DNA of 64,000 nt. Source: Loxodes magnus. Its lineage: Eukaryota; Ciliophora; Karyorelictea; Loxodida; Loxodidae. The notes under the pieces are model-generated. The model did not search any database. It saw nothing but the letters and a program-made list of their open reading frames with translations, and was not told where the DNA came from. Below, piece after piece: positions 30,098 to 64,000 of the stretch. Positions within the stretch are counted from its first letter, which is position 1; every line of letters starts with the position of its first letter. The stretch covers positions 1 to 64,000 of the forward strand of contig CAMPDV010002158.1 in NCBI GenBank assembly GCA_946699065.1. Reading direction: 5' to 3'. The translations under genes were made by a program, and so were the position numbers.

Positions 30098-30210
30098 CTT
30101 ACTTCTTCACTTTTCTAAATACTTATTACTTCTCAAAGCATACTCCTTTAAAATGAAAATTTATCTTCTCTTCTTACTTTACTTCTTCACTTTTCTAAAT
30201 ACTTATTACT

Positions 30211-38448: not shown

Positions 38449-38703
38449 CCTTAAAACTGAAATTCTATTTTCTTTTCTTACTTTACTTCTTCGCTTTTCT
38501 AAATACTTATTACTTCTCAAAGCATACTCCATAATACTGAAACTCTATTTTCTTTTCTTACTTTACTTCTTCACTTTTCTAAATACTTATTACTTCTCAA
38601 AGCATACTCCTTTAAACTGAAAATCTATTTTCTTTTCTTACTTTACTTCTTCGCTTTTCTAAATACTTATTACTTCTCAAAGCATACTCCTTAAAACTGA
38701 AAT

Positions 38704-39714: not shown

Positions 39715-42410
39715 CTTCTCGAAGCATACTCCATAATACTGAAACTCTATTTTCTTTTCTTACTTTACTTCTTCACTTTTCTAAATACTTATTACTTCTC
39801 AAAGCATACTCCATAATACTGAAACTCTATTTTCTTTTCTTGATTACTTCTTCGCTTTTCAAAATACTTATTACTTCTCAAAGCATACTACTTAAAACTG
39901 AAATTCTATCTTCTTTTCTTACTTACTTATTCACTTTTCTAAATACTTATTACTTCTCAAAGCATACTACTTAAAACTGAAATTCTATCTTCTATTCTTA
40001 CTTTACATCTTCACTTTTCTAAATACTTATTACTTCTCAAAGCATACTCCTTTAAACTGAAATTCTATCTTCTTTTCTTACTTTACATCTTCACTTTTCA
40101 AAATACTTAATACTTCTCAAAGCATACTACTTAAAACTGAAATTCTATCTTCTTTTCTTACTTTACTTCTTCACTTTTCTAAATACTTATTTAATCTCAA
40201 AGCATACTCATAAAACTGAAACGCTACTTTCTCTTCTTACTTTACTTCTTCACTTTTCTAAATACTTATTACTTATCAAAGCATGCTCCTTAAAACTGAA
40301 ATTCTATCTTTTTTTCTTACTTACTTCTTCACTTTTCTAAATACTTATTACTTCTCGAAGCATACTCCATAATACTGAAACTCTATTTTCTTTTCTTACT
40401 TTACTTCTTCACTTTTCTAAATACTTATTACTTCTCGAAGCATACTCCATAATACTGAAATTCTATCTTCTTTTCTTACTTTACTTATTCACTTTTCTAA
40501 ATATTAATTACTTATCAAAGCATGCTCTTTAAAACTGAAATTCTATCTTCTATTCTTACTTTACATCTTCACTTTTCTAAATACTTATTACTTCTCAAAG
40601 CATACTCCTTTAAACTGAAATTCTATCTTCTCTTCTTACTTTACTTCTTCACTTTTCTAAATACTTATTACTTCTCAAAGCATACTACTTAAAACTGAAA
40701 TTCTATCTTACTTTCTTACTTTACTTCTTCACTTTTCTAAATACTTATTACTTCTCAAAGCATACTCCTTTAAACTGAAAATCTATTTTCTTTTCTTACT
40801 TTACTTCTTCACTTTTCTAAATACTTAATACTTCTCAAAGCATACTCCATAATACTGAAACTCTATTTTCTTTTCTTACTTTACTTCTTCACTTTTCTAA
40901 ATACTTATTACTTCTCGAAGCATACTCCATAATACTGAAACTCTATTTTCTTTTCTTACTTTACTTCTTCACTTTTCTAAATACTTATTACTTATCAAAG
41001 CATACTCCTTTAAACTGAAACGCTACTTTCTCTTCTTACTTTACTTCTTCACTTTTCTAAATACTTATTACTTCTCAAAGCATACTCCTTTAAACTGAAA
41101 ATCTATTTTCTTTTCTTACTTTACTTCTTCACTTTTCTAAATACTTATTACTTCTCGAAGCATACTACTTAAAACTGAAATTCTACCTTCTATTCTTACT
41201 TTACTTCTTCACTTTTCTAAATACTTATTACTTCTCAAAGCATACTCCTTTAAACTGAAAATCTATTTTCTTTTCTTACTTTACTTCTTCACTTTTCTAA
41301 ATACTTATTACTTCTCAAAGCATACTCCTTAAAACTGAAATTCTACCTTCTTTTCTTACTTTACTTCTTCACTTTTCTAAATACTTATTACTTCTCAAAG
41401 CATACTCCTTTAAACTGAAACGCTACTTTCTCTTCTTACTTTACTTCTTCACTTTTCTAAATACTTATTACTTCTCAAAGCATACTCCTTTAAACTGAAA
41501 CTCTATTTTCTTTTCTTACTTTACTTCTTCACTTTTCTAAATATTAATTACTTATCAAAGCATGCTCCTTAAAACTGAAATTCTATTTTCTTTTCTTACT
41601 TACTTCTTCGCTTTTCTAAATACTTATTACTTCTCAAAGCATGCTCCTTAAAGCTGAAATTCTATCTTCTTTTCTTACTTTACATCTTCACTTTTCTAAA
41701 TACTTAATTACTTCTCAAAGCATACTACTTAAAACTGAAATTCTATCTTCTTTTCTTACTTTACTTATTCACTTTTCTAAATACTTATTACTTCTCAAAG
41801 CATACTCCTTTAAACTGAAACGCTACTTTCTCTTCTTACTTTACTTCTTCACTTTTCTAAATACTTATTACTTCTCAAAGCATGCTCCTTAAAACTGAAA
41901 TTCTATTTTCATTTCTTACTTTACTTCTTCACTTTTCTAAATACTTATTACTTCTCAAAGCATACTCCATAATACTGAAACTCTATTTTCTTTTCTTACT
42001 TTACTTCTTCACTTTTCTAAATACTTATTACTTATCAAAGCATGCTCCTTAAAACTGAAATTCTATTTTCTTTTCTTACTTTACTTCTTCACTTTTCTAA
42101 ATACTTATTACTTCTCGAAGCATACTCCATAATACTGAAACTCTATCTTCTTTTCTTACTTTACTTCTTCACTTTTCTAAATACTTATTACTTATCAAAG
42201 CATGCTCCTTAAAACTGAAATTCTATTTTCTTTTCTTACTTACTTCTTCGCTTTTCAAAATACTTATTACTTCTCAAAGCATACTACTTAAAACTGAAAT
42301 TCTATCTTCTTTTCTTAACTTACTTCTTCACTTTTCTAAATACTTATTACTTCTCGAAGCATACTACTTAAAACTGAAATTCTATCTTTTTTTCTTACTT
42401 TACTTCTTCA

Positions 42411-43462
42411 CTTTTCTAAATACTTAATTACTTCTCAAAGCATACTACTTAATATTGAAATTCTACCTTCTTTTCTTACTTTACTTCTTCACTTTTCTAA
42501 ATACTTATTACTTCTCAAAGCATACTACTTAATACTGAAATTCTATCTTCTTTTCTTACTTTACTTCTTCACTTTTCTAAATACTTATTACTTATCAAAG
42601 CATGCTCCTTAATACTGAAATTCTATCTTCTTTTCTTACTTTACTTCTTCACTTTTCTAAATACTTATTACTTCTCAAAGCATACTACTTAAAACTGAAA
42701 TTCTATCTTCTTTTCTTACTTTACTTCTTCACTTTTCTAAATACTTATTACTTCTCAAAGCATACTCCTTTAAACTGAAACGCTACTTTCTCTTCTTACT
42801 TTACTTCTTCACTTTTCTAAATACTTATTACTTCTCAAAGCATACTCCTTTAAACTGAAAATCTATTTTCTTTTCTTACTTTACTTCTTCACTTTTCTAA
42901 ATACTTAATTACTTCTCAAAGCATACTACTTAAAACTGAAATTCTATCTTACTTTCTTACTTTACTTCTTCACTTTTCTAAATACTTAATTACTTCTCAA
43001 AGCATACTACTTAATATTGAAATTCTACCTTCTTTTCTTACTTTACTTCTTCACTTTTCTAAATACTTATTACTTATCAAAGCATGCTCCTTAATACTGA
43101 AATTCTATCTTCTTTTCTTACTTTACTTCTTCACTTTTCTAAATACTTATTACTTCTCAAAGCATACTACTTAATACTGAAATTCTATCTTCTTTTCTTA
43201 CTTTACTTCTTCACTTTTCTAAATACTTATTACTTCTCAAAGCATACTACTTAAAACTGAAATTCTATCTTCTTTTCTTACTTTACTTCTTCACTTTTCT
43301 AAATACTTATTACTTCTCAAAGCATACTCCTTTAAACTGAAACGCTACTTTCTCTTCTTACTTTACTTCTTCACTTTTCTAAATACTTATTACTTCTCAA
43401 AGCATACTCCTTTAAACTGAAAATCTATTTTCTTTTCTTACTTTACTTCTTCACTTTTCTAA
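42411..43462 (+). repeat. 562-bp higher-order repeat with two monomers transposed
   Basis: AATATTGAAATTC lies at 42,451 and 43,013. Both copies continue with an E monomer, A and B. Directly after the marker, copy 1 has CTCAAAGCATACTACTTAATACTG then TTATCAAAGCATGCTCCTTAATACTG; copy 2 has these two monomers in the opposite order. Each is a rare TTAATACTG form, so they belong together. Confidence 0.8.
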
Positions 43463-43682
43463 ATACTTATTACTTCTCAAAGCATACTACTTAAAACTGA
43501 AATTCTATCTTCTTTTCTTACTTTACTTCTTCACTTTTCTAAATACTTATTACTTCTCAAAGCATACTCCTTTAAACTGAAACGCTACTTTCTCTTCTTA
43601 CTTTACTTCTTCACTTTTCTAAATACTTATTACTTCTCAAAGCATACTACTTAAAACTGAAATTCTATCTTCTTTTCTTAAC

Positions 43683-46600
43683 TTACTTCTTCACTTTTCT
43701 AAATACTTATTACTTCTCGAAGCATACTACTTAAAACTGAAATTCTATCTTTTTTTCTTATTTTACTTCTTCACTTTTCTAAATACTTAATTACTTCTCA
43801 AAGCATACTACTTAATATTGAAATTCTACCTTCTTTTCTTACTTTACTTCTTCACTTTTCTAAATACTTATTACTTATCAAAGCATGCTCCTTAAAACTG
43901 AAATTCTATCTTCTTTTCTTACTTTACTTCTTCACTTTTCTAAATACTTATTACTTCTCAAAGCATACTACTTAAAACTGAAATTCTATCTTCTTTTCTT
44001 ACTTTACTTCTTCACTTTTCTAAATACTTATTACTTCTCAAAGCATACTCCATAATACTGAAACTCTATTTTCTTTTCTTACTTTACTTCTTCACTTTTC
44101 TAAATACTTATTACTTATCAAAGCATGCTCCTTAAAACTGAAATTCTATTTTCTTTTCTTACTTTACTTCTTCACTTTTCTAAATACTTATTACTTCTCG
44201 AAGCATACTCCATAATACTGAAACTCTATCTTCTTTTCTTACTTTACTTCTTCACTTTTCTAAATAATTATTACTTATCAAAGCATGCTCCTTAAAACTG
44301 AAATTCTATTTTCTTTTCTTACTTACTTCTTCGCTTTTCTAAATACTTATTACTTCTCAAAGCATACTACTTAAAACTGAAATTCTATCTTCTTTTCTTA
44401 ACTTACTTCTTCACTTTTCTAAATACTTATTACTTATCAAAGCATGCTCCTTAAAACTGAAATTCTATTTTCTTTTCTTGATTACTTCTTCACTTTTCTA
44501 AATACTTATTACTTCTCAAAGCATACTCCATAATACTGAAACTCTATTTTCTTTTCTTACTTACTTCTTCGCTTTTCTAAATACTTATTACTTCTCAAAG
44601 CATACTCCTTTAAACTGAAAATCTATTTTCTTTTCTTACTTTACTTCTTCACTTTTCTAAATACTTATTACTTCTCAAAGCATACTACTTAAAACTGAAA
44701 TTCTATCTTTTTTTCTTACTTTACTTCTTCACTTTTCTAAATACTTATAACTTCTCAAAGCATACTCCTTTAAACTGAAACGCTACTTTCTCTTCTTACT
44801 TTACTTCTTCACTTTTCTAAATACTTATTACTTCTCAAAGCATACTCCTTTAAACTGAAAATCTATTTTCTTTTCTTACTTTACTTCTTCACTTTTCTAA
44901 ATACTTATTACTTCTCGAAGCATACTACTTAAAACTGAAATTCTATCTTTTTTTCTTACTTTACTTCTTCGCTTTTCAAAATACTTATTACTTCTCAAAG
45001 CATACTCCTTTAAACTGAAAATCTATTTTCTTTTCTTACTTTACTTCTTCACTTTTCTAAATACTTATTACTTCTCGAAGCATACTCCATAATACTGAAA
45101 TTCTATTTTCTTTTCTTACTTTACTTCTTCACTTTTCTAAATACTTATTACTTCTCAAAGCATACTCCTTAAAACTGAAATTCTATTTTCTTTTCTTACT
45201 TACTTCTTCGCTTTTCTAAATACTTATTACTTCTCAAAGCATACTCCTTTAAACTTAAAATCTATCTTCTCTTCTTACTTTACTTCTTCACTTTTCTAAA
45301 TACTTATTACTTCTCAAAGCATACTCCTTTAAACTGAAATTCTATCTTCTTTTCTTACTTTACTTCTTCACTTTTCTAAATACTTATTACTTCTCAAAGC
45401 ATACTCCTTTAAACTGAAACGCTACTTTCTCTTCTTACTTTACTTCTTCACTTTTCTAAATACTTATTACTTCTCAAAGCATACTCCTTTAAACTGAAAA
45501 TCTATTTTCTTTTCTTACTTACTTCTTCGCTTTTCAAAATACTTATTACTTATCAAAGCATGCTCCTTAAAACTGAAATTCTATTTTCTTTTCTTACTTA
45601 CTTCTTCGCTTTTCTAAATACTTATTACTTCTCAAAGCATGCTCCTTAAAACTGAAATTCTATTTTCTTTTCTTACTTTACTTCTTCACTTTTCTAAATA
45701 CTTATTACTTCTCAAAGCATACTCCTTTAAACTGAAAATCTATTTTCTTTTCTTACTTTACTTCTTCACTTTTCTAAATACTTATTACTTCTCGAAGCAT
45801 ACTACTTAAAACTGAAATTCTATCTTTTTTTCTTACTTTACTTCTTCACTTTTCTAAATACTTAATTACTTCTCAAAGCATACTACTTAATATTGAAATT
45901 CTACCTTCTTTTCTTACTTTACTTCTTCACTTTTCTAAATACTTATTACTTATCAAAGCATGCTCCTTAAAACTGAAATTCTATCTTCTTTTCTTACTTT
46001 ACTTCTTCACTTTTCTAAATACTTATTACTTCTCAAAGCATACTACTTAAAACTGAAATTCTATCTTCTTTTCTTACTTTACTTCTTCACTTTTCTAAAT
46101 ACTTATTACTTCTCAAAGCATACTCCATAATACTGAAACTCTATTTTCTTTTCTTACTTTACTTCTTCACTTTTCTAAATACTTATTACTTATCAAAGCA
46201 TGCTCCTTAAAACTGAAATTCTATTTTCTTTTCTTACTTTACTTCTTCACTTTTCTAAATACTTATTACTTCTCGAAGCATACTCCATAATACTGAAACT
46301 CTATCTTCTTTTCTTACTTTACTTCTTCACTTTTCTAAATAATTATTACTTATCAAAGCATGCTCCTTAAAACTGAAATTCTATTTTCTTTTCTTACTTA
46401 CTTCTTCGCTTTTCTAAATACTTATTACTTCTCAAAGCATACTACTTAAAACTGAAATTCTATCTTCTTTTCTTAACTTACTTCTTCACTTTTCTAAATA
46501 CTTATTACTTATCAAAGCATGCTCCTTAAAACTGAAATTCTATTTTCTTTTCTTGATTACTTCTTCACTTTTCTAAATACTTATTACTTCTCAAAGCATA

Positions 46601-48450
46601 CTCCATAATACTGAAACTCTATTTTCTTTTCTTACTTACTTCTTCGCTTTTCTAAATACTTATTACTTCTCAAAGCATACTCCTTTAAACTGAAAATCTA
46701 TTTTCTTTTCTTACTTTACTTCTTCACTTTTCTAAATACTTATTACTTCTCAAAGCATACTACTTAAAACTGAAATTCTATCTTTTTTTCTTACTTTACT
46801 TCTTCACTTTTCTAAATACTTATAACTTCTCAAAGCATACTCCTTTAAACTGAAACGCTACTTTCTCTTCTTACTTTACTTCTTCACTTTTCTAAATACT
46901 TATTACTTCTCAAAGCATACTCCTTTAAACTGAAAATCTATTTTCTTTTCTTACTTTACTTCTTCACTTTTCTAAATACTTATTACTTCTCGAAGCATAC
47001 TACTTAAAACTGAAATTCTATCTTTTTTTCTTACTTTACTTCTTCGCTTTTCAAAATACTTATTACTTCTCAAAGCATACTCCTTTAAACTGAAAATCTA
47101 TTTTCTTTTCTTACTTTACTTCTTCACTTTTCTAAATACTTATTACTTCTCGAAGCATACTCCATAATACTGAAATTCTATTTTCTTTTCTTACTTTACT
47201 TCTTCACTTTTCTAAATACTTATTACTTCTCAAAGCATACTCCTTAAAACTGAAATTCTATTTTCTTTTCTTACTTACTTCTTCGCTTTTCTAAATACTT
47301 ATTACTTCTCAAAGCATACTCCTTTAAACTTAAAATCTATCTTCTCTTCTTACTTTACTTCTTCACTTTTCTAAATACTTATTACTTCTCAAAGCATACT
47401 CCTTTAAACTGAAATTCTATCTTCTTTTCTTACTTTACTTCTTCACTTTTCTAAATACTTATTACTTCTCAAAGCATACTCCTTTAAACTGAAACGCTAC
47501 TTTCTCTTCTTACTTTACTTCTTCACTTTTCTAAATACTTATTACTTCTCAAAGCATACTCCTTAAAACTGAAATTCTATTTTCTTTTCTTACTTACTTC
47601 TTCGCTTTTCTAAATACTTATTACTTCTCAAAGCATACTCCTTTAAACTTAAAATCTATCTTCTCTTCTTACTTTACTTCTTCACTTTTCTAAATACTTA
47701 TTACTTCTCAAAGCATACTCCTTTAAACTGAAATTCTATCTTCTTTTCTTACTTTACTTCTTCACTTTTCTAAATACTTATTACTTCTCAAAGCATACTC
47801 CTTTAAACTGAAACGCTACTTTCTCTTCTTACTTTACTTCTTCACTTTTCTAAATACTTATTACTTCTCAAAGCATACTCCTTTAAACTGAAAATCTATT
47901 TTCTTTTCTTACTTACTTCTTCGCTTTTCAAAATACTTATTACTTATCAAAGCATGCTCCTTAAAACTGAAATTCTATTTTCTTTTCTTACTTACTTCTT
48001 CGCTTTTCTAAATACTTATTACTTCTCAAAGCATGCTCCTTAAAACTGAAATTCTATTTTCTTTTCTTACTTTACTTCTTCACTTTTCTAAATACTTATT
48101 ACTTCTCAAAGCATACTCCTTTAAACTGAAAATCTATTTTCTTTTCTTACTTTACTTCTTCACTTTTCTAAATACTTATTACTTCTCGAAGCATACTACT
48201 TAAAACTGAAATTCTATCTTTTTTTCTTACTTTACTTCTTCACTTTTCTAAATACTTAATTACTTCTCAAAGCATACTACTTAATATTGAAATTCTACCT
48301 TCTTTTCTTACTTTACTTCTTCACTTTTCTAAATACTTATTACTTATCAAAGCATGCTCCTTAATACTGAAATTCTATCTTCTTTTCTTACTTTACTTCT
48401 TCACTTTTCTAAATACTTATTACTTCTCAAAGCATACTACTTAAAACTGA
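43683..48450 (+). repeat. 2,075-bp higher-order repeat, three copies
   Basis: Bases 43,683-45,489 match 45,758-47,564 at exactly 2,075 bp. A private variant, CTAAATAATTATTAC (44,266 and 46,341), and AATATTGAAATTC (43,816 and 45,891) confirm the shift. Near 47,249-47,886 a 319-bp, four-monomer segment is tandemly doubled, so the third copy follows at 2,394 (2,075 + 319) and continues to about 48,450. One point difference near the start is TTATTTTAC against TTACTTTAC. Confidence 0.85.
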
Positions 48451-48479
48451 AATTCTATCTTTTTTTCTTACTTACTTCT

Positions 48480-51406
48480 TCACTTTTCTAAATACTTATT
48501 ACTTCTCAAAGCATACTCCTTTAAACTGAAATTCTATCTTCTTTTCTTACTTTACTTCTTCACTTTTCTAAATACTTATTACTTCTCAAAGCATACTCCA
48601 TAATACTGAAACTCTATCTTCTTTTCTTACTTTACTTCTTCGCTTTTCTAAATACTTATTACTTCTCAAAGCATGCTCCTTAAAACTGAAATTCTATTTT
48701 CTTTTCTTACTTACTTCTTCGCTTTTCTAAATACTTATTACTTCTCAAAGCATACTCCTTTAAACTTAAAATCTATCTTCTCTTCTTACTTTACTTCTTC
48801 ACTTTTCTAAATACTTATTACTTCTCGAAGCATACTCCTTTAAACTGAAATTCTATCTTCTTTTCTTACTTTACTTCTTCACTTTTCTAAATACTTATTA
48901 CTTCTCAAAGCATACTACTTAAAACTGAAATTCTATCTTCTTTTCTTACTTACTTCTTCACTTTTCTAAATACTTATTACTTCTCAAAGCATACTACTTA
49001 ATATTGAAATTCTACCTTCTTTTCTTACTTTACTTCTTCACTTTTCTAAATACTTATTACTTCTCAAAGCATACTCCATAATACTGAAACTCTATCTTCT
49101 TTTCTTACTTTACTTCTTCGCTTTTCTAAATACTTATTACTTCTCAAAGCATGCTCCTTAAAACTGAAATTCTATTTTCTTTTCTTACTTACTTCTTCGC
49201 TTTTCTAAATACTTATTACTTCTCAAAGCATACTCCTTTAAACTTAAAATCTATCTTCTCTTCTTACTTTACTTCTTCACTTTTCTAAATACTTATTACT
49301 TCTCAAAGCATACTCCTTAAAACTGAAAATCTATTTTCTTTTCTTACTTTACTTCTTCACTTTTCTAAATACTTATTACTTCTCAAAGCATACTCCTTTA
49401 AACTGAAACGCTACTTTCTCTTCTTAACTTACTTCTTCACTTTTCTAAATACTTATTACTTCTCAAAGCATACTCCTTTAAACTGAAACGCTACTTTCTC
49501 TTCTTACTTTACTTCTTCACTTTTCTAAATACTTATTACTTCTCAAAGCATACTCCTTTAAACTGAAACGCTACTTTCTCTTCTTACTTTACTTATTCAC
49601 TTTTCTAAATACTTATTACTTCTCAAAGCATACTCCTTTAAACTGAAACGCTACTTTCTCTTCTTAACTTACTTCTTCACTTTTCTAAATACTTATTACT
49701 TCTCAAAGCATACTACTTAAAACTGAAATTCTATCTTTTTTTCTTACTTACTTCTTCACTTTTCTAAATACTTATTACTTCTCAAAGCATACTCCTTTAA
49801 ACTGAAACGCTACTTTCTCTTCTTAACTTACTTCTTCACTTTTCTAAATACTTATTACTTCTCAAAGCATACTCCTTTAAACTGAAAATCTATTTTCTTT
49901 TCTTACTTTACTTCTTCACTTTTCTAAATACTTATTACTTCTCAAAGCATACTCCTTTAAACTGAAACGCTACTTTCTCTTCTTACTTTACTTATTCACT
50001 TTTCTAAATACTTATTACTTCTCAAAGCATACTCCTTTAAACTGAAACGCTACTTTCTCTTCTTAACTTACTTCTTCACTTTTCTAAATACTTATTACTT
50101 CTCAAAGCATACTCCTTTAAACTGAAAATCTATTTTCTTTTCTTACTTTACTTCTTCACTTTTCTAAATACTTATTACTTCTCAAAGCATACTCCTTTAA
50201 ACTGAAACGCTACTTTCTCTTCTTAACTTACTTCTTCACTTTTCTAAATACTTATTACTTATCAAAGCATGCTCCTTAATACTGAAATTCTATCTTCTTT
50301 TCTTACTTTACTTCTTCACTTTTCTAAATACTTATTACTTCTCAAAGCATACTACTTAAAACTGAAATTCTATCTTCTTTTCTTACTTTACTTCTTCACT
50401 TTTCTAAATACTTATTACTTCTCAAAGCATACTCCTTTAAACTGAAATTCTATCTTCTTTTCTTACTTTACTTCTTCACTTTTCTAAATACTTATTACTT
50501 CTCAAAGCATACTCCATAATACTGAAACTCTATCTTCTTTTCTTACTTTACTTCTTCGCTTTTCTAAATACTTATTACTTCTCAAAGCATGCTCCTTAAA
50601 ACTGAAATTCTATTTTCTTTTCTTACTTACTTCTTCGCTTTTCTAAATACTTATTACTTCTCAAAGCATACTCCTTTAAACTTAAAATCTATCTTCTCTT
50701 CTTACTTTACTTCTTCACTTTTCTAAATACTTATTACTTCTCAAAGCATACTCCTTTAAACTGAAATTCTATCTTCTTTTCTTACTTTACTTCTTCACTT
50801 TTCTAAATACTTTTTACTTCTCAAAGCATACTACTTAAAACTGAAATTCTATCTTTTTTTCTTACTTACTTCTTCACTTTTCTAAATACTTATTACTTCT
50901 CAAAGCATACTACTTAATATTGAAATTCTACCTTCTTTTCTTACTTTACTTCTTCACTTTTCTAAATACTTATTACTTCTCAAAGCATACTCCATAATAC
51001 TGAAACTCTATCTTCTTTTCTTACTTTACTTCTTCGCTTTTCTAAATACTTATTACTTCTCAAAGCATGCTCCTTAAAACTGAAATTCTATTTTCTTTTC
51101 TTACTTACTTCTTCGCTTTTCTAAATACTTATTACTTCTCAAAGCATACTCCTTTAAACTTAAAATCTATCTTCTCTTCTTACTTTACTTCTTCACTTTT
51201 CTAAATACTTATTACTTCTCAAAGCATACTCCTTAAAACTGAAAATCTATTTTCTTTTCTTACTTTACTTCTTCACTTTTCTAAATACTTATTACTTCTC
51301 AAAGCATACTCCTTTAAACTGAAACGCTACTTTCTCTTCTTAACTTACTTCTTCACTTTTCTAAATACTTATTACTTCTCAAAGCATACTCCTTTAAACT
51401 GAAAAT
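48480..51406 (+). repeat. 1,916-bp higher-order repeat
   Basis: Bases 48,480-49,490 match 50,396-51,406. CCATAATACTG (48,599 and 50,515) and AATATTGAAATTC (49,001 and 50,917) are both 1,916 bp apart. Copy differences are small: CTCGAAGC against CTCAAAGC near 48,837, and TACTTTTTAC near 50,810 in place of TACTTATTAC. The space between, 49,491-50,395, holds a younger local repeat. Confidence 0.8.
49400..50250 (+). repeat. Class A-rich local repeat, ~399-bp shift
   Basis: Class A monomers (AAACGCTAC with TCTCTTCTTAAC or TCTCTTCTTAC) are packed here more densely than elsewhere, broken by single B and E units. The unit with TTTACTTATTCAC lies at 49,590 and 49,990, about five monomers apart. This region has the highest local density of ACGC-type CpG that I noticed in the window. 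Confidence 0.7.
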
Positions 51407-52164
51407 CTATTTTCTTTTCTTACTTTACTTCTTCACTTTTCTAAATACTTATTACTTCTCAAAGCATACTCCTTTAAAATGAAACGCTACTTTCTCTTCT
51501 TACTTTACTTATTCACTTTTCTAAATACTTATTACTTCTCAAAGCATACTCCTTTAAACTGAAACGCTACTTTCTCTTCTTAACTTACTTCTTCACTTTT
51601 CTAAATACTTATTACTTCTCGAAGCATACTACTTAAAACTGAAATTCTATCATTTTTTCTTACTTTACTTCTTCACTTTTCTAAATACTTAATTACTTCT
51701 CAAAGCATACTACTTAATATTGAAATTCTACCTTCTTTTCTTACTTTACTTCTTCACTTTTCTAAATACTTATTACTTCTCAAAGCATACTCCTTTAAAC
51801 TGAAATTCTATCTTACTTTCTTACTTTACTTCTTCACTTTTCTAAATACTTATTACTTCTCAAAGCATACTACTTAAAACTGAAATTCTATCTTCTTTTC
51901 TTACTTTACTTCTTCACTTTTCTAAATACTTATTACTTCTCAAAGCATACTACTTAAAACTGAAATTCTATATTCTTTTCTTAACTTACTTCTTCACTTT
52001 TCTAAATACTTATTACTTCTCAAAGCATACTACTTAAAACTGAAATTCTATATTCTTTTCTTAACTTACTTCTTCACTTTTCTAAATACTTAATACTTCT
52101 AAAATCATACTCCTTTAAACTGAAATTCTACCTTCTTTTCTTGATTACTTCTTCACTTTTCTAA
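51407..52164 (+). repeat. Mosaic satellite region
   Basis: Mixed monomers, including another A/TTATTCAC pair, one AATATTGAAATTC unit, CTTACTTTCTTAC and two adjacent TATATTC units. The variant TATCATTTTTTC near 51,650 is a private point change. No gene or insertion is visible. Confidence 0.65.
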
Positions 52165-53999
52165 ATACTTATTACTTCTCAAAGCATACTCCATAATACT
52201 GAAACTCTATTTTCTTTTCTTACTTTACTTCTTCACTTTTCTAAATACTTATTACTTCTCGAAGCATACTACTTAAAACTGAAATTCTATCTTTTTTTCT
52301 TACTTACTTCTTCACTTTTCTAAATACTTATTACTTCTCAAAGCATACTCCTTTAAACTGAAATTCTATCTTCTTTTCTTACTTTACTTCTTCACTTTTC
52401 TAAATACTTATTACTTCTCAAAGCATACTACTTAATATTGAAATTCTACCTTCTTTTCTTACTTTACTTCTTCACTTTTCTAAATACTTATTACTTCTCA
52501 AAGCATACTCCATAATACTGAAACTCTATCTTCTTTTCTTACTTTACTTCTTCGCTTTTCTAAATACTTATTACTTCTCAAAGCATGCTCCTTAAAACTG
52601 AAATTCTATTTTCTTTTCTTACTTACTTCTTCGCTTTTCTAAATACTTATTACTTCTCAAAGCATACTCCTTTAAACTTAAAATCTATCTTCTCTTCTTA
52701 CTTTACTTCTTCACTTTTCTAAATACTTATTACTTCTCAAAGCATACTCCATAATACTGAAACTCTATTTTCTTTTCTTACTTTACTTCTTCACTTTTCT
52801 AAATACTTATTACTTCTCGAAGCATACTACTTAAAACTGAAATTCTATCTTTTTTTCTTACTTACTTCTTCACTTTTCTAAATACTTATTACTTCTCAAA
52901 GCATACTCCTTTAAACTGAAATTCTATCTTCTTTTCTTACTTTACTTCTTCACTTTTCTAAATACTTATTACTTCTCAAAGCATACTACTTAATATTGAA
53001 ATTCTACCTTCTTTTCTTACTTTACTTCTTCACTTTTCTAAATACTTATTACTTCTCAAAGCATACTCCATAATACTGAAACTCTATCTTCTTTTCTTAC
53101 TTTACTTCTTCGCTTTTCTAAATACTTATTACTTCTCAAAGCATGCTCCTTAAAACTGAAATTCTATTTTCTTTTCTTACTTACTTCTTCGCTTTTCTAA
53201 ATACTTATTACTTCTCAAAGCATACTCCTTAAAACTGAAATTCTATCTTCTTTTCTTACTTTACTTCTTCACTTTTCTAAATACTTATTACTTCTCAAAG
53301 CATACTACTTAAAACTGAAATTCTATCTTCTTTTCTTACTTTACTTCTTCACTTTTCTAAATACTTATTACTTCTCAAAGCATACTCCATAATACTGAAA
53401 CTCTATTTTCTTTTCTTACTTTACTTCTTCACTTTTCTAAATACTTATTACTTATCAAAGCATACTCCATAATACTGAAACTCTATTTTCTTTTCTTACT
53501 TTACTTCTTCACTTTTCTAAATACTTATTACTTCTCGAAGCATACTACTTAAAACTGAAATTCTATCTTTTTTTCTTACTTACTTCTTCACTTTTCTAAA
53601 TACTTATTACTTCTCAAAGCATACTCCTTTAAACTGAAATTCTATCTTCTTTTCTTACTTTACTTCTTCACTTTTCTAAATACTTATTACTTCTCAAAGC
53701 ATACTACTTAATATTGAAATTCTACCTTCTTTTCTTACTTTACTTCTTCACTTTTCTAAATACTTATTACTTCTCAAAGCATACTCCATAATACTGAAAC
53801 TCTATCTTCTTTTCTTACTTTACTTCTTCACTTTTCTAAATACTTATTACTTCTCAAAGCATGCTCCTTAAAACTGAAATTCTATTTTCTTTTCTTACTT
53901 ACTTCTTCGCTTTTCTAAATACTTATTACTTCTCAAAGCATACTCCTTTAAACTTAAAATCTATCTTCTCTTCTTACTTTACTTCTTCACTTTTCTAAA
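52165..53999 (+). repeat. Seven- to nine-monomer higher-order repeat, shifts 558 and 718 bp
   Basis: CTCGAAGCATACTACTTAAAAC lies with its GAAG at 52,261, 52,819 and 53,537. In all three copies it is preceded by a C monomer and followed by a 79-bp unit, CTTTAAACTGAAATTC, AATATTGAAATTC, CCATAATACTG with CTATCTTC, a GCATGC unit and a 79-bp CGC unit. The middle copy carries two extra monomers (718 = 558 + 160). The same series of units is also the core of the 1,916-bp repeat to the left. Confidence 0.8.
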
Positions 54000-55261
54000 T
54001 ACTTATTACTTCTCAAAGCATACTCCTTAAAACTGAAATTCTATCTTCTTTTCTTACTTTACTTCTTCACTTTTCTAAATACTTAATTACTTCTCAAAGC
54101 ATACTCCTTAAAACTGAAATTATATCTTCTTTTCTTAACTTACTTCTTCACTTTTCTAAATACTTAATACTTCTCAAAGCATACTACTTAAAACTGAAAA
54201 TCTATTTTCTTTTCTTACTTACTTCTTCGCTTTTCTAAATACTTATTACTTATCAAAGCATGCTCCTTAAAACTGAAATTATATTTTCTTTTCTTGATTA
54301 CTTCTTCGCTTTTCTAAATACTTATTACTTCTCAAAGCATACTCCTTTAAAATGAAAATTTATCTTCTCTTCTTACTTTACTTCTTCACTTTTCTAAATA
54401 CTTAATTACTTCTCAAAGCATACTACTTAAAACTGAAATTCTACCTTCTTTTCTTACTTTACTTCTTCACTTTTCTAAATACTTATTACTTATCAAAGCA
54501 TGCTCCTTAAAACTGAAACGCTACTTTCTCTTCTTACTTTACTTCTTCACTTTTCTAAATACTTATTACTTCTCAAAGCATACTCCTTTAAACTGAAAAT
54601 CTATTTTCTTTTCTTACTTTACTTCTTCACTTTTCTAAATACTTAATTACTTCTCAAAGCATACTACTTAAAACTGAAATTCTATCTTCTTTTCTTACTT
54701 TACTTCAGACTTTTCTAAATACTTAATACTTCTCAAAGCATACTACTTAAAACTGAAATTCTATCTTTTTTTCTTACTTACTTCTTCGCTTTTCTAAATA
54801 CTTATTACTTCTCAAAGCATACTCCTTAAAACTGAAATTCTATCTTCTTTTCTTACTTTACTTCTTCACTTTTCTAAATACTTATTACTTCTCAAAGCAT
54901 ACTACTTAATATTGAAATTCTACCTTCTTTTCTTACTTTACTTCTTCACTTTTCTAAATACTTATTACTTCTCAAAGCATACTACTTAAAACTGAAATTC
55001 TATCTTCTTTTCTTACTTTACTTCTTCACTTTTCTAAATACTTATTACTTCTCAAAGCATACTACTTAATATTGAAATTCTACCTTCTTTTCTTACTTTA
55101 CTTCTTCACTTTTCTAAATACTTATTACTTCTCAAAGCATACTCCTTTAAACTGAAACGCTACTTTCTCTTCTTACTTTACTTCTTCACTTTTCTAAATA
55201 CTTATTACTTCTCAAAGCATACTCCTTTAAACTGAAAATCTATTTTCTTTTCTTACTTTAC
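54000..55261 (+). repeat. Mosaic satellite region
   Basis: Mixed monomers. Near 54,350 there is a CTTTAAAATGAAAATTTATC unit like those at 30,150 and 34,857, and near 54,700 an ACTTCAGAC unit. A pair of E plus AATATTGAAATTC units is repeated at about a 160-bp spacing near 54,900-55,080. No gene is present. Confidence 0.65.
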
Positions 55262-58200
55262 TTCTTCACTTTTCTAAATACTTATTACTTCTCAAAGCAT
55301 ACTCCTTAAAACTGAAATTCTACCTTCTATTCTTACTTTACTTATTCACTTTTCTAAATACTTATTACTTATCAAAGCATGCTCCTTAAAACTGAAATTC
55401 TATTTTCTTTTCTTGATTACTTCTTCGCTTTTCAAAATACTTATTACTTCTCAAAGCATACTACTTAAAACTGAAATTCTATCTTCTTTTCTTACTTTAC
55501 TTATTCACTTTTCTAAATACTTATTACTTCTCAAAGCATACTACTTAAAACTGAAATTCTATCTTCTATTCTTACTTTACATCTTCACTTTTCTAAATAC
55601 TTATTACTTCTCAAAGCATACTCCTTTAAACTGAAATTCTATCTTCTTTTCTTACTTTACATCTTCACTTTTCAAAATACTTAATACTTCTCAAAGCATA
55701 CTACTTAAAACTGAAATTCTATCTTCTTTTCTTACTTTACTTCTTCACTTTTCTAAATACTTATTTAATCTCAAAGCATACTCATAAAACTGAAACGCTA
55801 CTTTCTCTTCTTACTTTACTTCTTCACTTTTCTAAATACTTATTACTTATCAAAGCATGCTCCTTAAAACTGAAATTCTATCTTTTTTTCTTACTTACTT
55901 CTTCACTTTTCTAAATACTTATTACTTCTCGAAGCATACTCCATAATACTGAAACTCTATTTTCTTTTCTTACTTTACTTCTTCACTTTTCTAAATACTT
56001 ATTACTTCTCGAAGCATACTCCATAATACTGAAATTCTATCTTCTTTTCTTACTTTACTTATTCACTTTTCTAAATATTAATTACTTATCAAAGCATGCT
56101 CTTTAAAACTGAAATTCTATCTTCTATTCTTACTTTACATCTTCACTTTTCTAAATACTTATTACTTCTCAAAGCATACTCCTTTAAACTGAAATTCTAT
56201 CTTCTTTTCTTACTTTACTTCTTCACTTTTCTAAATACTTAATTACTTCTCAAAGCATACTACTTAAAACTGAAATTCTATCTTACTTTCTTACTTTACT
56301 TCTTCACTTTTCTAAATACTTATTACTTCTCAAAGCATACTCCTTAAAACTGAAATTCTATTTTCTTTTCTTACTTACTTCTTCGCTTTTCTAAATACTT
56401 AATACTTCTCAAAGCATACTCCATAATACTGAAACTCTATTTTCTTTTCTTACTTTACTTCTTCACTTTTCTAAATACTTATTACTTCTCGAAGCATACT
56501 CCATAATACTGAAACTCTATTTTCTTTTCTTACTTTACTTCTTCACTTTTCTAAATACTTATTACTTATCAAAGCATACTCCTTTAAACTGAAACGCTAC
56601 TTTCTCTTCTTACTTTACTTCTTCACTTTTCTAAATACTTATTACTTCTCAAAGCATACTACTTAAAACTGAAATTCTATCTTCTTTTCTTAACTTACTT
56701 CTTCACTTTTCTAAATACTTAATACTTCTCAAAGCATACTACTTAAAACTGAAATTCTACCTTCTATTCTTACTTTACTTCTTCACTTTTCTAAATACTT
56801 ATTACTTCTCAAAGCATACTCCTTTAAACTGAAAATCTATTTTCTTTTCTTACTTTACTTCTTCACTTTTCTAAATACTTAATACTACTCAAAGCATACT
56901 ACTTAATTCTGAAATTCTATTTTCTCTTCTTAATCCACTTCTTCACTTTTCTAAATACTTAATACTTCTCAAAGCATACTACTTAAAACTGAAATTCTAT
57001 CTTTTTTTCTTACTTACTTCTTCGCTTTTCTAAATACTTATTACTTATCAAAGCATGCTCCTTAAAACTGAAATTCTATTTTCTTTTCTTACTTTACTTC
57101 TTCACTTTTCTAAATACTTATTACTTCTCAAAGCATACTCCTTAAAACTGAAATTCTATCTTCTATTCTTACTTTACATCTTCACTTTTCTAAATACTTA
57201 TTACTTCTCAAAGCATACTCCTTTAAACTGAAATTCTATCTTCTTTTCTTACTTTACTTCTTCACTTTTCTAAATACTTAATTACTTCTCAAAGCATACT
57301 ACTTAAAACTGAAATTCTATCTTCTTTTCTTACTTTACTTCTTCACTTTTCTAAATACTTAATACTTCTCAAAGCATACTACTTAAAACTGAAAATCTAT
57401 TTTCTTTTCTTACTTACTTCTTCGCTTTTCAAAATACTTATTACTTCTCAAAGCATACTACTTAAAACTGAAATTCTATATTCTTTTCTTAACTTACTTC
57501 TTCACTTTTCTAAATACTTATTACTTCTCAAAGCATACTACTTAAAACTGAAATTCTATATTCTTTTCTTAACTTACTTCTTCACTTTTCTAAATACTTA
57601 ATACTTCTAAAATCATACTCCTTTAAACTGAAATTCTACCTTCTTTTCTTACTTTACTTCTTCACTTTTCTAAATACTTATTACTTCTCAAAGCATACTC
57701 CTTAAAACTGAAATTCTATTTTCTTTTCTTACTTTACTTCTTCGCTTTTCTAAATACTTATTACTTCTCAAAGCATACTCCATAATACTGAAACTCTATT
57801 TTCTTTTCTTACTTTACTTCTTCACTTTTCTAAATACTTATTACTTCTCAAAGCATACTCCTTTAAACTGAAATTCTATCTTCTATTCTTACTTTACATC
57901 TTCACTTTTCTAAATACTTATTACTTCTCAAAGCATACTCCTTTAAACTGAAATTCTATCTTCTTTTCTTACTTTACTTCTTCACTTTTCTAAATACTTA
58001 ATTACTTCTCAAAGCATACTACTTAAAACTGAAATTCTATCTTACTTTCTTACTTTACTTCTTCACTTTTCTAAATACTTAATTACTTCTCAAAGCATAC
58101 TACTTAAAACTGAAATTCTATCTTACTTTCTTACTTTACTTCTTCACTTTTCTAAATACTTAATACTTCTCAAAGCATACTACTTAAAACTGAAAATCTA

Positions 58201-61200
58201 TTTTCTATTCTTACTTTACTTCTTCACTTTTCTAAATACTTATTACTTCTCAAAGCATACTACTTAAAACTGAAATTCTATATTCTTTTCTTAACTTACT
58301 TCTTCACTTTTCTAAATACTTATTACTTCTCAAAGCATACTCCTTTAAACTGAAATTCTACCTTCTTTTCTTACTTTACTTCTTCACTTTTCTAAATACT
58401 TATTACTTCTCAAAGCATACTCCTTAAAACTGAAATTCTATTTTCTTTTCTTACTTTACTTCTTCGCTTTTCTAAATACTTATTACTTCTCAAAGCATAC
58501 TCCATAATACTGAAACTCTATTTTCTTTTCTTACTTTACTTCTTCACTTTTCTAAATACTTATTACTTCTCAAAGCATACTCCTTTAAACTGAAACGCTA
58601 CTTTCTCTTCTTAACTTACTTCTTCACTTTTCTAAATACTTATTACTTCTCAAAGCATACTCCTTAAAACTGAAATTATATCTTCTTTTCTTACTTTACT
58701 TCTTCACTTTTCTAAATACTTATTACTTCTCAAAGCATACTACTTAATATTTAAATTCTATCTTCTCTTCTTAATCCACTTCTTCACTTTTCTAAATACT
58801 TATAACTTCTCAAAGCATACTACTTAAAACTGAAATTCTATCTTTTTTTCTTACTTACTTCTTCACTTTTCTAAATACTTATTACTTCTCAAAGCATACT
58901 ACTTTAAACTGAAAATCTATTTTCTTTTATTACTTTACTTCTTCACTTTTCTAAATACTTATTACTTCTCAAAGCATACTCCATAATACTGAAACTTTAT
59001 TTTCTTTTCTTACTTTACTTCTTCACTTTTCTAAATACTTATTACTTCTCAAAGCATACTCCTTAAAACTGAAATTCTATCTTCTTTTCTTACTTTACTT
59101 CTTCGCTTTTCTAAATACTTATTACTTCTCAAAGCATACTCCTTTAAACTGAAAATTTATCTTCTCTTCTTACTTTACTTCTTCACTTTTCTAAATACTT
59201 AATTACTTCTCAAAGCATACTACTTAAAACTGAAATTCTATCTTCTTTTCTTACTTTACTTATTCACTTTTCTAAATACTTATTACTTCTCAAAGCATAC
59301 TCCTTTAAACTGAAACGCTACTTTCTCTTCTTACTTTACTTCTTCACTTTTCTAAATACTTAATTACTTCTCAAAGCATACTACTTAAAACTGAAATTCT
59401 ATCTTCTTTTCTTAACTTACTTTTTCACTTTTCTAAATACTTATAACTTCTCAAAGCATACTCCTTAAAACTGAAATTCTACCTTCTTTTCTTACTTTAC
59501 TTCTTCACTTTTCTAAATACTTATTACTTCTCAAAGCATACTCCTTTAAACTGAAACGCTACTTTCTCTTCTTACTTTACTTCTTCACTTTTCTAAATAC
59601 TTATTACTTCTCAAAGCATACTCCTTTAAACTGAAAATCTATTTTCTTTTCTTACTTTACTTCTTCACTTTTCTAAATACTTATTACTTCTCGAAGCATA
59701 CTCCATAATACTGAAACTCTATTTTCTTTTCTTACTTTACTTCTTCACTTTTCTAAATACTTATTACTTATCAAAGCATGCTCCTTAAAACTGAAATTCT
59801 ATTTTCTTTTCTTGATTACTTCTTCGCTTTTCAAAATACTTATTACTTCTCAAAGCATACTACTTAAAACTGAAATTCTATCTTCTTTTCTTACTTTACT
59901 TATTCACTTTTCTAAATACTTATTACTTCTCAAAGCATACTACTTAAAACTGAAATTCTATCTTCTATTCTTACTTTACATCTTCACTTTTCTAAATACT
60001 TATTACTTCTCAAAGCATACTCCTTTAAACTGAAATTCTATCTTCTTTTCTTACTTTACATCTTCACTTTTCAAAATACTTAATACTTCTCAAAGCATAC
60101 TACTTAAAACTGAAATTCTATCTTCTTTTCTTACTTTACTTCTTCACTTTTCTAAATACTTATTTAATCTCAAAGCATACTCCTTTAAACTGAAACGCTA
60201 CTTTCTCTTCTTACTTTACTTCTTCACTTTTCTAAATACTTATTACTTATCAAAGCATGCTCCTTAAAACTGAAATTCTATCTTTTTTTCTTACTTACTT
60301 CTTCACTTTTCTAAATACTTATTACTTCTCGAAGCATACTCCATAATACTGAAACTCTATTTTCTTTTCTTACTTTACTTCTTCACTTTTCTAAATACTT
60401 ATTACTTCTCGAAGCATACTCCATAATACTGAAATTCTATCTTCTTTTCTTACTTTACTTATTCACTTTTCTAAATATTAATTACTTATCAAAGCATGCT
60501 CTTTAAAACTGAAATTCTATCTTCTATTCTTACTTTACATCTTCACTTTTCTAAATACTTATTACTTCTCAAAGCATACTCCTTTAAACTGAAATTCTAT
60601 CTTCTTTTCTTACTTTACTTCTTCACTTTTCTAAATACTTAATTACTTCTCAAAGCATACTACTTAAAACTGAAATTCTATCTTACTTTCTTACTATACT
60701 TCTTCACTTTTCTAAATACTTATTACTTCTCAAAGCATACTCCTTTAAACTGAAAATCTATTTTCTTTTCTTACTTTACTTCTTCACTTTTCTAAATACT
60801 TAATACTTCTCAAAGCATACTCCATAATACTGAAACTCTATTTTCTTTTCTTACTTTACTTCTTCACTTTTCTAAATACTTATTACTTCTCGAAGCATAC
60901 TCCATAATACTGAAACTCTATTTTCTTTTCTTACTTTACTTCTTCACTTTTCTAAATACTTATTACTTATCAAAGCATACTCCTTTAAACTGAAACGCTA
61001 CTTTCTCTTCTTACTTTACTTCTTCACTTTTCTAAATACTTATTACTTCTCAAAGCATACTCCTTTAAACTGAAAATCTATTTTCTTTTCTTACTTTACT
61101 TCTTCACTTTTCTAAATACTTATTACTTCTCGAAGCATACTACTTAAAACTGAAATTCTACCTTCTATTCTTACTTTACTTCTTCACTTTTCTAAATACT

Positions 61201-62345
61201 TATTACTTCTCAAAGCATACTCCTTTAAACTGAAAATCTATTTTCTTTTCTTACTTTACTTCTTCACTTTTCTAAATACTTATTACTTCTCAAAGCATAC
61301 TCCTTTAAACTGAAACTCTATTTTCTTTTCTTACTTTACTTCTTCACTTTTCTAAATACTTATTACTTCTCAAAGCATACTCCTTAAAACTGAAATTCTA
61401 CCTTCTTTTCTTACTTTACTTCTTCACTTTTCTAAATACTTATTACTTCTCAAAGCATACTCCTTTAAACTGAAACGCTACTTTCTCTTCTTACTTTACT
61501 TCTTCACTTTTCTAAATACTTATTACTTCTCAAAGCATACTCCTTTAAACTGAAACTCTATTTTCTTTTCTTACTTTACTTCTTCACTTTTCTAAATATT
61601 AATTACTTATCAAAGCATGCTCCTTAAAACTGAAATTCTATTTTCTTTTCTTACTTACTTCTTCGCTTTTCTAAATACTTATTACTTCTCAAAGCATGCT
61701 CCTTAAAGCTGAAATTCTATCTTCTTTTCTTACTTTACATCTTCACTTTTCTAAATACTTAATTACTTCTCAAAGCATACTACTTAAAACTGAAATTCTA
61801 TCTTCTTTTCTTACTTTACTTATTCACTTTTCTAAATACTTATTACTTCTCAAAGCATACTCCTTTAAACTGAAACGCTACTTTCTCTTCTTACTTTACT
61901 TCTTCACTTTTCTAAATACTTATTACTTCTCAAAGCATGCTCCTTTAAACTGAAACGCTACTTTCTCTTCTTACTTTACTTATTCACTTTTCTAAATACT
62001 TATTACTTCTCAAAGCATACTCCTTTAAACTGAAACGCTACTTTCTCTTCTTAACTTACTTCTTCACTTTTCTAAATACTTATTACTTCTCGAAGCATAC
62101 TACTTAAAACTGAAATTCTATTTTCTTTTCTTACTTTACTTCTTCACTTTTCTAAATACTTATTACTTCTCGAAGCATACTCCATAATACTGAAACTCTA
62201 TCTTCTTTTCTTACTTTACTTCTTCACTTTTCTAAATACTTATTACTTATCAAAGCATGCTCCTTAAAACTGAAATTCTATTTTCTTTTCTTACTTACTT
62301 CTTCGCTTTTCAAAATACTTATTACTTCTCGAAGCATACTACTTA
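55262..62345 (+). repeat. Long-range duplicated block, right copy (~20 kb apart)
   Basis: This is the right-hand copy of 35,690-42,290. It contains its own internal repetition: the series starting with TTGATTACTTCTTCGC and CTTTTCAAAATAC occurs at 55,414 and 59,813 (4,399-bp shift), as it does at 35,842 and 39,841 (3,999-bp shift) in the left copy. It has an extra monomer near 61,300. The stretch 61,935-62,110 differs, yet matching resumes afterwards at the same 20,055-bp shift. Four short open frames of about 73-85 codons across the two copies are translated satellite. Confidence 0.8.
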
Positions 62346-62731
62346 AAACTGAAAATCTATTTTCTTTTCTTACTTTACTTCTTCACTTTTCTAAATACTT
62401 ATTACTTCTCGAAGCATACTACTTAAAACTGAAATTCTACCTTCTATTCTTACTTTACTTCTTCACTTTTCTAAATACTTATTACTTCTCAAAGCATACT
62501 CCTTTAAACTGAAAATCTATTTTCTTTTCTTACTTTACTTCTTCACTTTTCTAAATACTTATTACTTCTCAAAGCATACTCCTTTAAACTGAAACTCTAT
62601 TTTCTTTTCTTACTTTACTTCTTCACTTTTCTAAATACTTATTACTTCTCAAAGCATACTCCTTAAAACTGAAATTCTACCTTCTTTTCTTACTTTACTT
62701 CTTCACTTTTCTAAATACTTATTACTTCTCA
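62346..62731 (+). repeat. Last canonical monomers before the HindIII block
   Basis: About five ordinary monomers of B, E and A-like type with AAAGCATACT. The last one carrying AAGCAT ends near 62,700. There is no gap, inversion or foreign sequence at the change, so the next block grew from this same array. Confidence 0.75.
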
Positions 62732-62830
62732 AAGCTTACTCCTTAAAACTGAAACTCTATCTTCTTTTCTTACTTTACTTCTTCACTTTTCTATAGGCTA
62801 ACTTTCATCTACAAGCATATCTTGACAAAC

Positions 62831-62844
62831 CGAATACAGATTCG
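62831..62844. other. Short inverted repeat CGAAT-ACAG-ATTCG
   Basis: A perfect 5-bp inverted repeat with a 4-base loop inside the 130-bp segment, repeated at 63,073, 63,395, 63,637 and 63,959. Both arms carry a CpG-containing CGA/TCG, which is rare in this array. It could be a protein-binding palindrome or mere chance; the stem is too short to argue for a stable hairpin. Confidence 0.6.
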
Positions 62845-62897
62845 TAATTGTGACATTATTACTAACATTTTGGATATTCTAACTTATATTTTAGTGC

Positions 62898-62908
62898 TTG
62901 CTACGCAA
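62898..62908. other. Short inverted repeat TTGC-TAC-GCAA
   Basis: A perfect 4-bp inverted repeat around a 3-base centre, in the right half of the 130-bp segment, repeated in copies 2-4 (63,140, 63,462, 63,704). It is short, so its significance rests only on its place in a homogenised unit. Confidence 0.5.
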
Positions 62909-63035
62909 ACTTATCATTAGATATTCTTTTCTTACTTTACTTCTTCACTTTTCTAAATACTTATTACTTCTCAAAGCTTACTCCTTAAAACTGAAACTCT
63001 ATCTTCTTTTCTTACTTTACTTCTTCACTTTTCTA

Positions 63036-63165
63036 TAGGCTAACTTTCATCTACAAGCATATCTTGACAAACCGAATACAGATTCGTAATTGTGACATTA
63101 TTACTAACATTTTGGATATTCTAACTTATATTTTAGTGCTTGCTACGCAAACTTATCATTAGATA
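63036..63165 (+). repeat. 130-bp non-canonical segment, copy 2
   Basis: Same sequence as copy 1 by eye, 242 bp downstream, separated by a single HindIII-type monomer stretch of 112 bp. Confidence 0.9.
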
Positions 63166-63357
63166 TTCTTTTCTTACTTTACTTCTTCACTTTTCTAAAT
63201 ACTTATTACTTCTCAAAGCTTACTCCTTAAAACTGAAACTCTATCTTCTTTTCTTACTTTACTTCTTCACTTTTCTAAATACTTATTACTTCTCAAAGCT
63301 TACTCCTTAAAACTGAAACTCTATCTTCTTTTCTTACTTTACTTCTTCACTTTTCTA

Positions 63358-63487
63358 TAGGCTAACTTTCATCTACAAGCATATCTTGACAAACCGAATA
63401 CAGATTCGTAATTGTGACATTATTACTAACATTTTGGATATTCTAACTTATATTTTAGTGCTTGCTACGCAAACTTATCATTAGATA
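63358..63487 (+). repeat. 130-bp non-canonical segment, copy 3
   Basis: Same sequence as copy 1 by eye, 322 bp after copy 2, with two HindIII-type monomers between. It starts the second 564-bp unit. Confidence 0.9.
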
Positions 63488-63599
63488 TTCTTTTCTTACT
63501 TTACTTCTTCACTTTTCTAAATACTTATTACTTCTCAAAGCTTACTCCTTAAAACTGAAACTCTATCTTCTTTTCTTACTTTACTTCTTCACTTTTCTA

Positions 63600-63729
63600 T
63601 AGGCTAACTTTCATCTACAAGCATATCTTGACAAACCGAATACAGATTCGTAATTGTGACATTATTACTAACATTTTGGATATTCTAACTTATATTTTAG
63701 TGCTTGCTACGCAAACTTATCATTAGATA
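63600..63729 (+). repeat. 130-bp non-canonical segment, copy 4
   Basis: Same sequence as copy 2 by eye and exactly 564 bp from it; 242 bp after copy 3. Confidence 0.9.
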
Positions 63730-63921
63730 TTCTTTTCTTACTTTACTTCTTCACTTTTCTAAATACTTATTACTTCTCAAAGCTTACTCCTTAAAACTGA
63801 AACTCTATCTTCTTTTCTTACTTTACTTCTTCACTTTTCTAAATACTTATTACTTCTCAAAGCTTACTCCTTAAAACTGAAACTCTATCTTCTTTTCTTA
63901 CTTTACTTCTTCACTTTTCTA

Positions 63922-64000
63922 TAGGCTAACTTTCATCTACAAGCATATCTTGACAAACCGAATACAGATTCGTAATTGTGACATTATTACTAACATTTTG
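63922..64000 (+). repeat. 130-bp non-canonical segment, copy 5 (cut by window end)
   Basis: The first 79 bases match copy 1 by eye, 1,128 bp (2 x 564) downstream. It shows that the 564-bp repeat continues beyond the window. Confidence 0.9.

What the first reader, a model, noticed from the sequence alone, without database searches (positions are those of the whole stretch)
62732..64000. A 564-bp HOR with alternating one- and two-monomer spacing begins at the right end
Five copies of a 130-bp non-canonical segment lie at intervals of 242, 322, 242 and 322 bp. This gives a compound unit of 564 bp built from two sub-units that differ by one monomer. The two full copies look identical, while HORs elsewhere in the window show point changes and whole-monomer gains. 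That suggests the window catches the edge of a younger, actively homogenised domain, where one might look for centromere activity.
Basis: partly seen in the sequence, partly recalled or inferred. Interest (0 to 1): 0.72.

Follow-up and report, generated by a model that had tools for sequence, protein, structure and literature searches.

The report
Two interleaved satellites in Loxodes
This is a stretch where two abundant satellite DNAs of a ciliate, very probably Loxodes magnus, are interleaved; the main satellite sits at contig ends in one nearly fixed orientation, which makes it a candidate for the chromosome-end DNA not yet identified in this organism.

Summary
In detail: 135-bp segments start at 62792, 63034, 63356, 63598 and 63920, and the sequence matches itself exactly at shift 564. 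The contig runs on to 75,339, and the 564 rhythm breaks at 64,164. There 28 identical 162-bp units (D) alternate irregularly with one, two or three identical 80-bp monomers (A) or ordinary monomers. D is a satellite of its own: 85,732 matches genome-wide, beside 462,903 for the 80-bp monomer. The domain is recently duplicated (exact copy of 3,455 bp), but 1,728-bp exact repeats occur elsewhere too. Genetic code and assembly size point to the Loxodes magnus macronuclear assembly, whose telomeres and telomerase "have eluded" detection. Four telomere-pattern searches found no arrays. At ends of large contigs the satellite has near-fixed polarity: starts 19 plus, 2 minus; ends 11 minus, 2 plus (Fisher p = 1.8e-5), G-rich strand outward. 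Best reading: a recombining satellite mosaic at or near chromosome ends, not a young centromeric HOR. Terminal position is inferred; mirrored interstitial blocks are the main rival. Telomerase was not tested, and the paper's SI was not readable.

The parts
13..62696 (+). 80-bp satellite array, ordinary monomers, one orientation
   Evidence: TRF period 80 over 13-63921, 800 copies; wraparound alignment, mean identity to consensus 0.944 over the first 780 rows
62457..62696 (+). three ordinary monomers (m1 m2 m3) that precede the mosaic here and precede its two later exact copies in the contig
   Evidence: block of 1932 bp from 62457 occurs exactly at 62457, 64469 and 71449
62697..62776 (+). A monomer, 80 bp, HindIII site; identical copies at 62939-63018, 63181-63260, 63261-63340, 63503-63582, 63745-63824, 63825-63904
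   Evidence: 7 exact copies in window, 47 in contig
62777..62938 (+). D unit, 162 bp (holds the 135-bp segment 62792-62926)
   Evidence: 28 exact copies in contig
63019..63180 (+). D unit
63341..63502 (+). D unit
63583..63744 (+). D unit
63905..64000 (+). D unit, cut by the window edge
62681..64000 (+). stretch with exact 564-bp period (continues to 64163 in the contig)

Best explanation
The feature is the edge of a mosaic of two satellites of Loxodes magnus: the 80-bp monomer and a 162-bp unit (D) that shares an exact 32-bp box with it and keeps its phase (162 = 2 x 81). Unequal exchange and segmental duplication have multiplied one D type and one A type into runs of D plus one to three A; the 564-bp period is one short regular stretch of this. 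SHOWN: the mosaic, identity of the units, three exact copies of the 1.9-kb edge block, genome-wide abundance of both repeats, contig-end location and prevailing polarity in the sample. INFERRED: the arrays lie at or next to chromosome ends with the G-rich strand running 5'->3' outward, and recombination between ends keeps them alike and long, as proposed for other organisms without canonical telomeres.
For: Irregular D + n x A order and threefold edge block. D as a separate satellite: 85,732 matches, pure 161-162-bp arrays on C1128 and C68; D + A mixtures on C34, C36, C1311. Listed exact monomer matches, 100 of 100 (a capped list, contigs C3-C17), lie within 40 kb of a contig end. Polarity 30 of 34 termini. 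No telomere arrays of eight or so known types. Published: Loxodes telomeres and telomerase not found (PMC11441545).
Against: Four dissenting termini (starts of C26 and C68, ends of C29 and C15). C68 inverts inside its D array. 23 of 40 starts and 23 of 34 ends, and 17 of 20 starts, show no satellite. No physical chromosome end was seen; no GGG and no G-quadruplex motif in the contig. Termini that share nothing show no strand skew (n = 44, +0.04).
Confidence: 0.55

Rival explanations
1. Interstitial arrays with mirror symmetry: unique - A(minus) - inversion - A(plus) - unique, for example around a centromere. Contigs break inside the block and so show the same polarity as true ends.
For: C68 begins with D(minus), inverts at about 11.8 kb and goes on as D(plus). 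Arrays break assemblies, so contig ends need not be chromosome ends.
Against: Only one inversion was seen in the stretches read, and its arms agree in 1476 of 1477 bases, which suggests a foldback artefact or a very recent event. The capped list of exact matches shows no interior array on C1-C16.
Confidence: 0.25
2. One reading: edge of a young, homogenised HOR domain with centromere activity.
For: Identical units; longest exact repeats of the contig involve this domain.
Against: No stable HOR period; two satellite families; end location and polarity; macronuclear assembly. Telocentric centromeres could give the same polarity and are not excluded.
Confidence: 0.1
3. Assembly artefact: collapsed or multiplied repeats by the assembler.
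For: The authors attribute the MIC/MAC size difference to misassembly of low-complexity repeats (PMC11441545 section 8); C68 palindrome.
Against: D + n x A organisation recurs with other variants and spacings on C34 (399, 241, 320) and C1311 (242, 324, 162). Misassembly within arrays would not create the polarity.
Confidence: 0.1

Closest known systems
Stranded complex telomeric repeats of Meloidogyne incognita, javanica and arenaria (PMC10844300; abstract start and 12 passages seen)
   Same: Complex repeat enriched at contig extremities, plus at starts and minus at ends, some contigs all repeat, G-richer strand outward, no canonical telomere repeat found
   Different: There confirmed by FISH, mostly at one end of chromosomes, with predicted G-quadruplexes and transcripts; here no FISH, several contigs with both ends, no GGG at all
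Satellite chromosome ends of Chironomus and other dipterans (recalled; only search listings seen)
   Same: Satellite-length tandem repeats in place of short telomerase repeats
   Different: Here terminal position unproven; different phylum; telomerase not tested
Centromeric higher-order repeats such as human alpha satellite (recalled)
   Same: Multi-monomer unit with near-identical copies inside a diverse monomer array
   Different: Unit order irregular; second satellite mixed in; no centromere evidence
Tandem repeats of the Loxodes magnus assemblies (PMC11441545: abstract, sections 8, 13, 25 and passages seen; SI not seen)
   Same: Same organism by code and size; 231 Mbp of tandem repeats reported for the macronuclear assembly
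   Different: Main text does not mention satellites or centromeres (term search); families, positions and polarity not described in what I could read

Membership tests
Higher-order repeat of a centromeric satellite | A multi-monomer unit repeated head to tail with near-identical copies | tested here: not met
   564-bp unit holds for 2.6 periods, then spacing becomes irregular
Higher-order repeat of a centromeric satellite | CENP-A/kinetochore association | not testable with these tools
   needs ChIP
Complex telomeric satellite (Meloidogyne/dipteran kind) | Located at contig extremities | tested here: met
   100 of 100 listed exact matches within 40 kb of an end (capped list); 26 of 74 termini plus 2 weak-polarity dissenters counted there as hits, i.e. 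28 of 74 carry it; 3 of 20
Complex telomeric satellite (Meloidogyne/dipteran kind) | Fixed strand orientation relative to the end | tested here: met
   30 of 34 termini; dissenters C26 and C68 starts, C29 and C15 ends
Complex telomeric satellite (Meloidogyne/dipteran kind) | Canonical telomere repeats absent | tested here: met
   8 scattered hits (control 142), 4 hits (control 1), 0, 0; other motifs untested
Complex telomeric satellite (Meloidogyne/dipteran kind) | Telomerase absent | not tested
   PF12009 search did not complete; published as not detected (PMC11441545)
Complex telomeric satellite (Meloidogyne/dipteran kind) | Signal at physical chromosome ends | not testable with these tools
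   needs FISH or BAL-31
Complex telomeric satellite (Meloidogyne/dipteran kind) | G-quadruplex potential of the outward strand | tested here: not met
   no GGG and no G4 motif in 75,339 bases; found in Meloidogyne, not required of the dipteran kind (recalled)
Loxodes (karyorelict) genome | TAA/TAG = Gln, TGA = Trp inside genes (NCBI table 27) | tested here: met
   kinase-pentapeptide-WD40 frame on C5 (L043), one gene
Loxodes (karyorelict) genome | Assembly size of L. magnus macronucleus, 706 Mbp | tested here: met
   705,730,643 bases against 706 Mbp

The most novel reading that the evidence does not exclude
The 80-bp satellite, with the 162-bp D unit mixed in, is the missing chromosome-end DNA of Loxodes: an oriented, G-skewed but G-quadruplex-free complex telomere in a ciliate (the group in which telomerase was discovered; recalled), kept by recombination. 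Contigs of 1.3-2.5 Mb with end satellites at both ends in opposite orientation (C9, C14, C16, C25, C32; and C3 with a 96-bp satellite at its start) would then be whole chromosomes.
Probability: 0.35. Interest if true: 0.87.

Novelty: new member of a known kind. Interest (0 to 1): 0.6.

Why it matters
[quoted passage not shown] A concrete sequence with end polarity makes that question testable by one FISH or BAL-31 experiment. For the window finding alone the lesson is smaller: a neat 564-bp rhythm can be a short regular stretch inside an irregular mosaic of two satellites.

Tried and rejected
The 135-bp segment as two diverged 80-bp monomers: not established. Its first half aligns in register with the monomer (local score reached by 33 and 22 of 1000 dinucleotide shuffles in two tests), its second half does not (836 and 899 of 1000) (earlier test gave 0 of 400 global and 9 of 400 local for the first half, 314 and 361 of 400 for the second).

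Insect, ant or kissing-bug origin (listings): dropped once the genetic code was read. RNA gene: no Rfam match up to E 5 in 60000-64000. Relatives in plasmids (one match, E 0.8) and viral contigs (0): none of note. A DNA search of the own genome with the segment found nothing, not even itself, because common words are skipped. Strings of the repeat are in none of the held papers. Not described in print as far as I searched: and a term search in the main text of PMC11441545; its SI (Fig. S6, SI Results 13) could not be read and may list the repeat.

Not counted as evidence: all non-satellite sequences shared between termini also have one polarity (WD40 group 13 of 13 pairs, five other pairs), but assembly that stops at a similar depth in a dispersed repeat would give the same. 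The null used plain shuffles, that dinucleotide shuffles. Termini were not a blind sample: C29, C34, C36, C68 and the starts of C5, C11, C14, C17 were already known to carry satellite; C41-C60 starts were unseen.

Full report
What is there. The window is an 80-bp satellite almost from edge to edge (TRF, 800 copies over 13-63921), strongly strand-skewed (GC skew -0.73 to -0.79 in 31 of 32 blocks and -0.60 in the last). Five copies of a different 135-bp segment start at 62792, 63034, 63356, 63598 and 63920, and the sequence matches itself at shift 564 with no mismatch for 919 bases.

What follows. The window is positions 1-64000 of a 75,339-base contig in a 705.7-Mb assembly. The 564-bp rhythm stops at 64,164. 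The 27 spacings between 28 identical segments are 242 (9), 322 (14), 402, 562, 2001 and 2481. In units, A = 80-bp monomer with a HindIII site, D = 162 bp: the run A D A D A A D A D A A D A A D occurs exactly three times (62697, 64709, 71689), each time behind the same three ordinary monomers (1932-bp block at 62457, 64469, 71449), with other A/D runs and ordinary monomers between. All 28 D and 47 A counted are exact copies. So the edge itself was duplicated with its neighbours; this is recent, irregular local amplification and not a regular HOR.

D is not a deviant monomer. A 33-base piece (up to 3 mismatches) has 39,121 forward and 46,611 reverse matches in the genome, roughly 14 Mb if each stands for 162 bp. 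Period 161-162 arrays open contigs C1128 and C68. The 80-bp monomer (32 bases, up to 3 mismatches) has 216,238 + 246,665 matches, about 37 Mb at 80 bp each. Mixed D and A arrays occur on C34, C36 and C1311. D and A share an exact 32-bp box and the phase; beyond the box the first half of D is weakly alike to the monomer and the second is not.

Age. The longest exact direct repeats of the contig involve this domain (3455 bp at 61003/69995, 2039 bp at 64459/71439), but exact repeats of 1728, 1377, 1316 and 1226 bp lie elsewhere in the window. Local identity along the rest of the array is even, 0.90-0.93 (the last block, 0.846, contains D). So 'younger' is fair, 'uniquely young' is not.

Whose genome. 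On contig C5 the satellite ends near 5.2 kb. A gene behind it reads as kinase, pentapeptide and WD40 repeats (Pfam) if TAA and TAG are glutamine and TGA tryptophan. That is the karyorelict code, table 27 (PMC11441545, passage). The same paper gives 706 Mbp for the Loxodes magnus macronuclear assembly; this one has 705,730,643 bases. The species is thus inferred, with high confidence, from one gene and the size. I saw its abstract, sections 8, 13 and 25, and search passages. It reports 231 Mbp of tandem repeats and says that telomeres and telomerase have eluded detection.

Where the satellite sits. The 100 exact monomer matches listed (a capped list, contigs C3-C17) all lie within 40 kb of a contig end. 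I then scored the first or last bases of large contigs. Of 40 starts, 15 carry the satellite on plus, 2 on minus, 23 not; of 34 ends, 9 on minus, 2 on plus, 23 not. Twenty further starts, unseen before, gave 3 plus, 0 minus, 17 none. With three termini known from match lists (C29 start, C3 and C13 ends), 30 of 34 agree (Fisher p = 1.8e-5); without those three, C68 and the borderline C15, 27 of 29. A single-orientation interstitial array would give both polarities alike. The G-rich strand runs outward, as at telomeres (recalled). C9, C14, C16, C25 and C32 carry it at both ends, inverted.

Telomere arrays. TTAGG/TTAGGG/TTAGGC/TTTAGGG-type triplets: 8 scattered hits, reversed-pattern control 142. 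(TNRGG)5: 4 hits, all TAAGG runs, control 1. Blepharisma and hypotrich type: 0 (Blepharisma motif from PMC9942806, one passage). Tetrahymena/Paramecium type: 0. Other motifs were not tested. Telomerase was not tested: the search did not complete.

Results against. The starts of C26 and C68 and the ends of C29 and C15 dissent. C68 holds an inversion whose arms match in 1476 of 1477 bases, as far as fetched: a foldback artefact, a very recent inversion, or the centre of a mirrored block. There is no GGG in the contig. About two thirds of the termini scored carry no satellite, and those that share nothing show no strand skew. No physical end was seen.

How it most likely works. Arrays at or near chromosome ends exchange with each other, which keeps one polarity and spreads variants such as A and D in bursts; the window shows such a burst. 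The closest precedent is Meloidogyne, where complex repeats on plus at contig starts and on minus at contig ends were confirmed as telomeric by FISH (PMC10844300, passages). A review lists Loxodes among potential telomerase losses (PMC12133305, one passage). The step from contig end to chromosome end is inference; mirrored interstitial blocks and telocentric centromeres remain possible.

Verdict. Observation right; '564-bp HOR' and 'centromere' not supported; the satellite itself is a testable candidate for the chromosome ends of Loxodes.

Noticed in passing
L031/L032 (C68:10320-13676), centre near C68:11,796: Inverted 162-bp array with arms identical in 1476 of 1477 bases: foldback artefact, recent inversion or hairpin-like end.
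   Followed up: partly
L043 (C5:1-10000), 7.4-9.9 kb, minus strand: Kinase - pentapeptide - WD40 gene in karyorelict code next to the satellite; WD40 sequence also forms the ends of C4, C6, C31, C68 and starts of C46, C47, all in one polarity.
   Followed up: partly
L075 (C3:1-120) and L135 (C56:1-50): A further C/T-rich, G-poor satellite of 96-bp period starts both contigs on plus; 533 forward and 143 reverse exact matches genome-wide.
   Followed up: partly
C5505 and C5958 (not fetched): COX1 matches lie in mirrored pairs on both contigs: mitochondrial DNA with large inverted copies, real or foldback.
   Followed up: no
L029 (C36:1287177-1290209), about position 546: A D unit that switches into an A-like monomer with a HindIII site in its second half: a recombinant between the two satellites.
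   Followed up: partly
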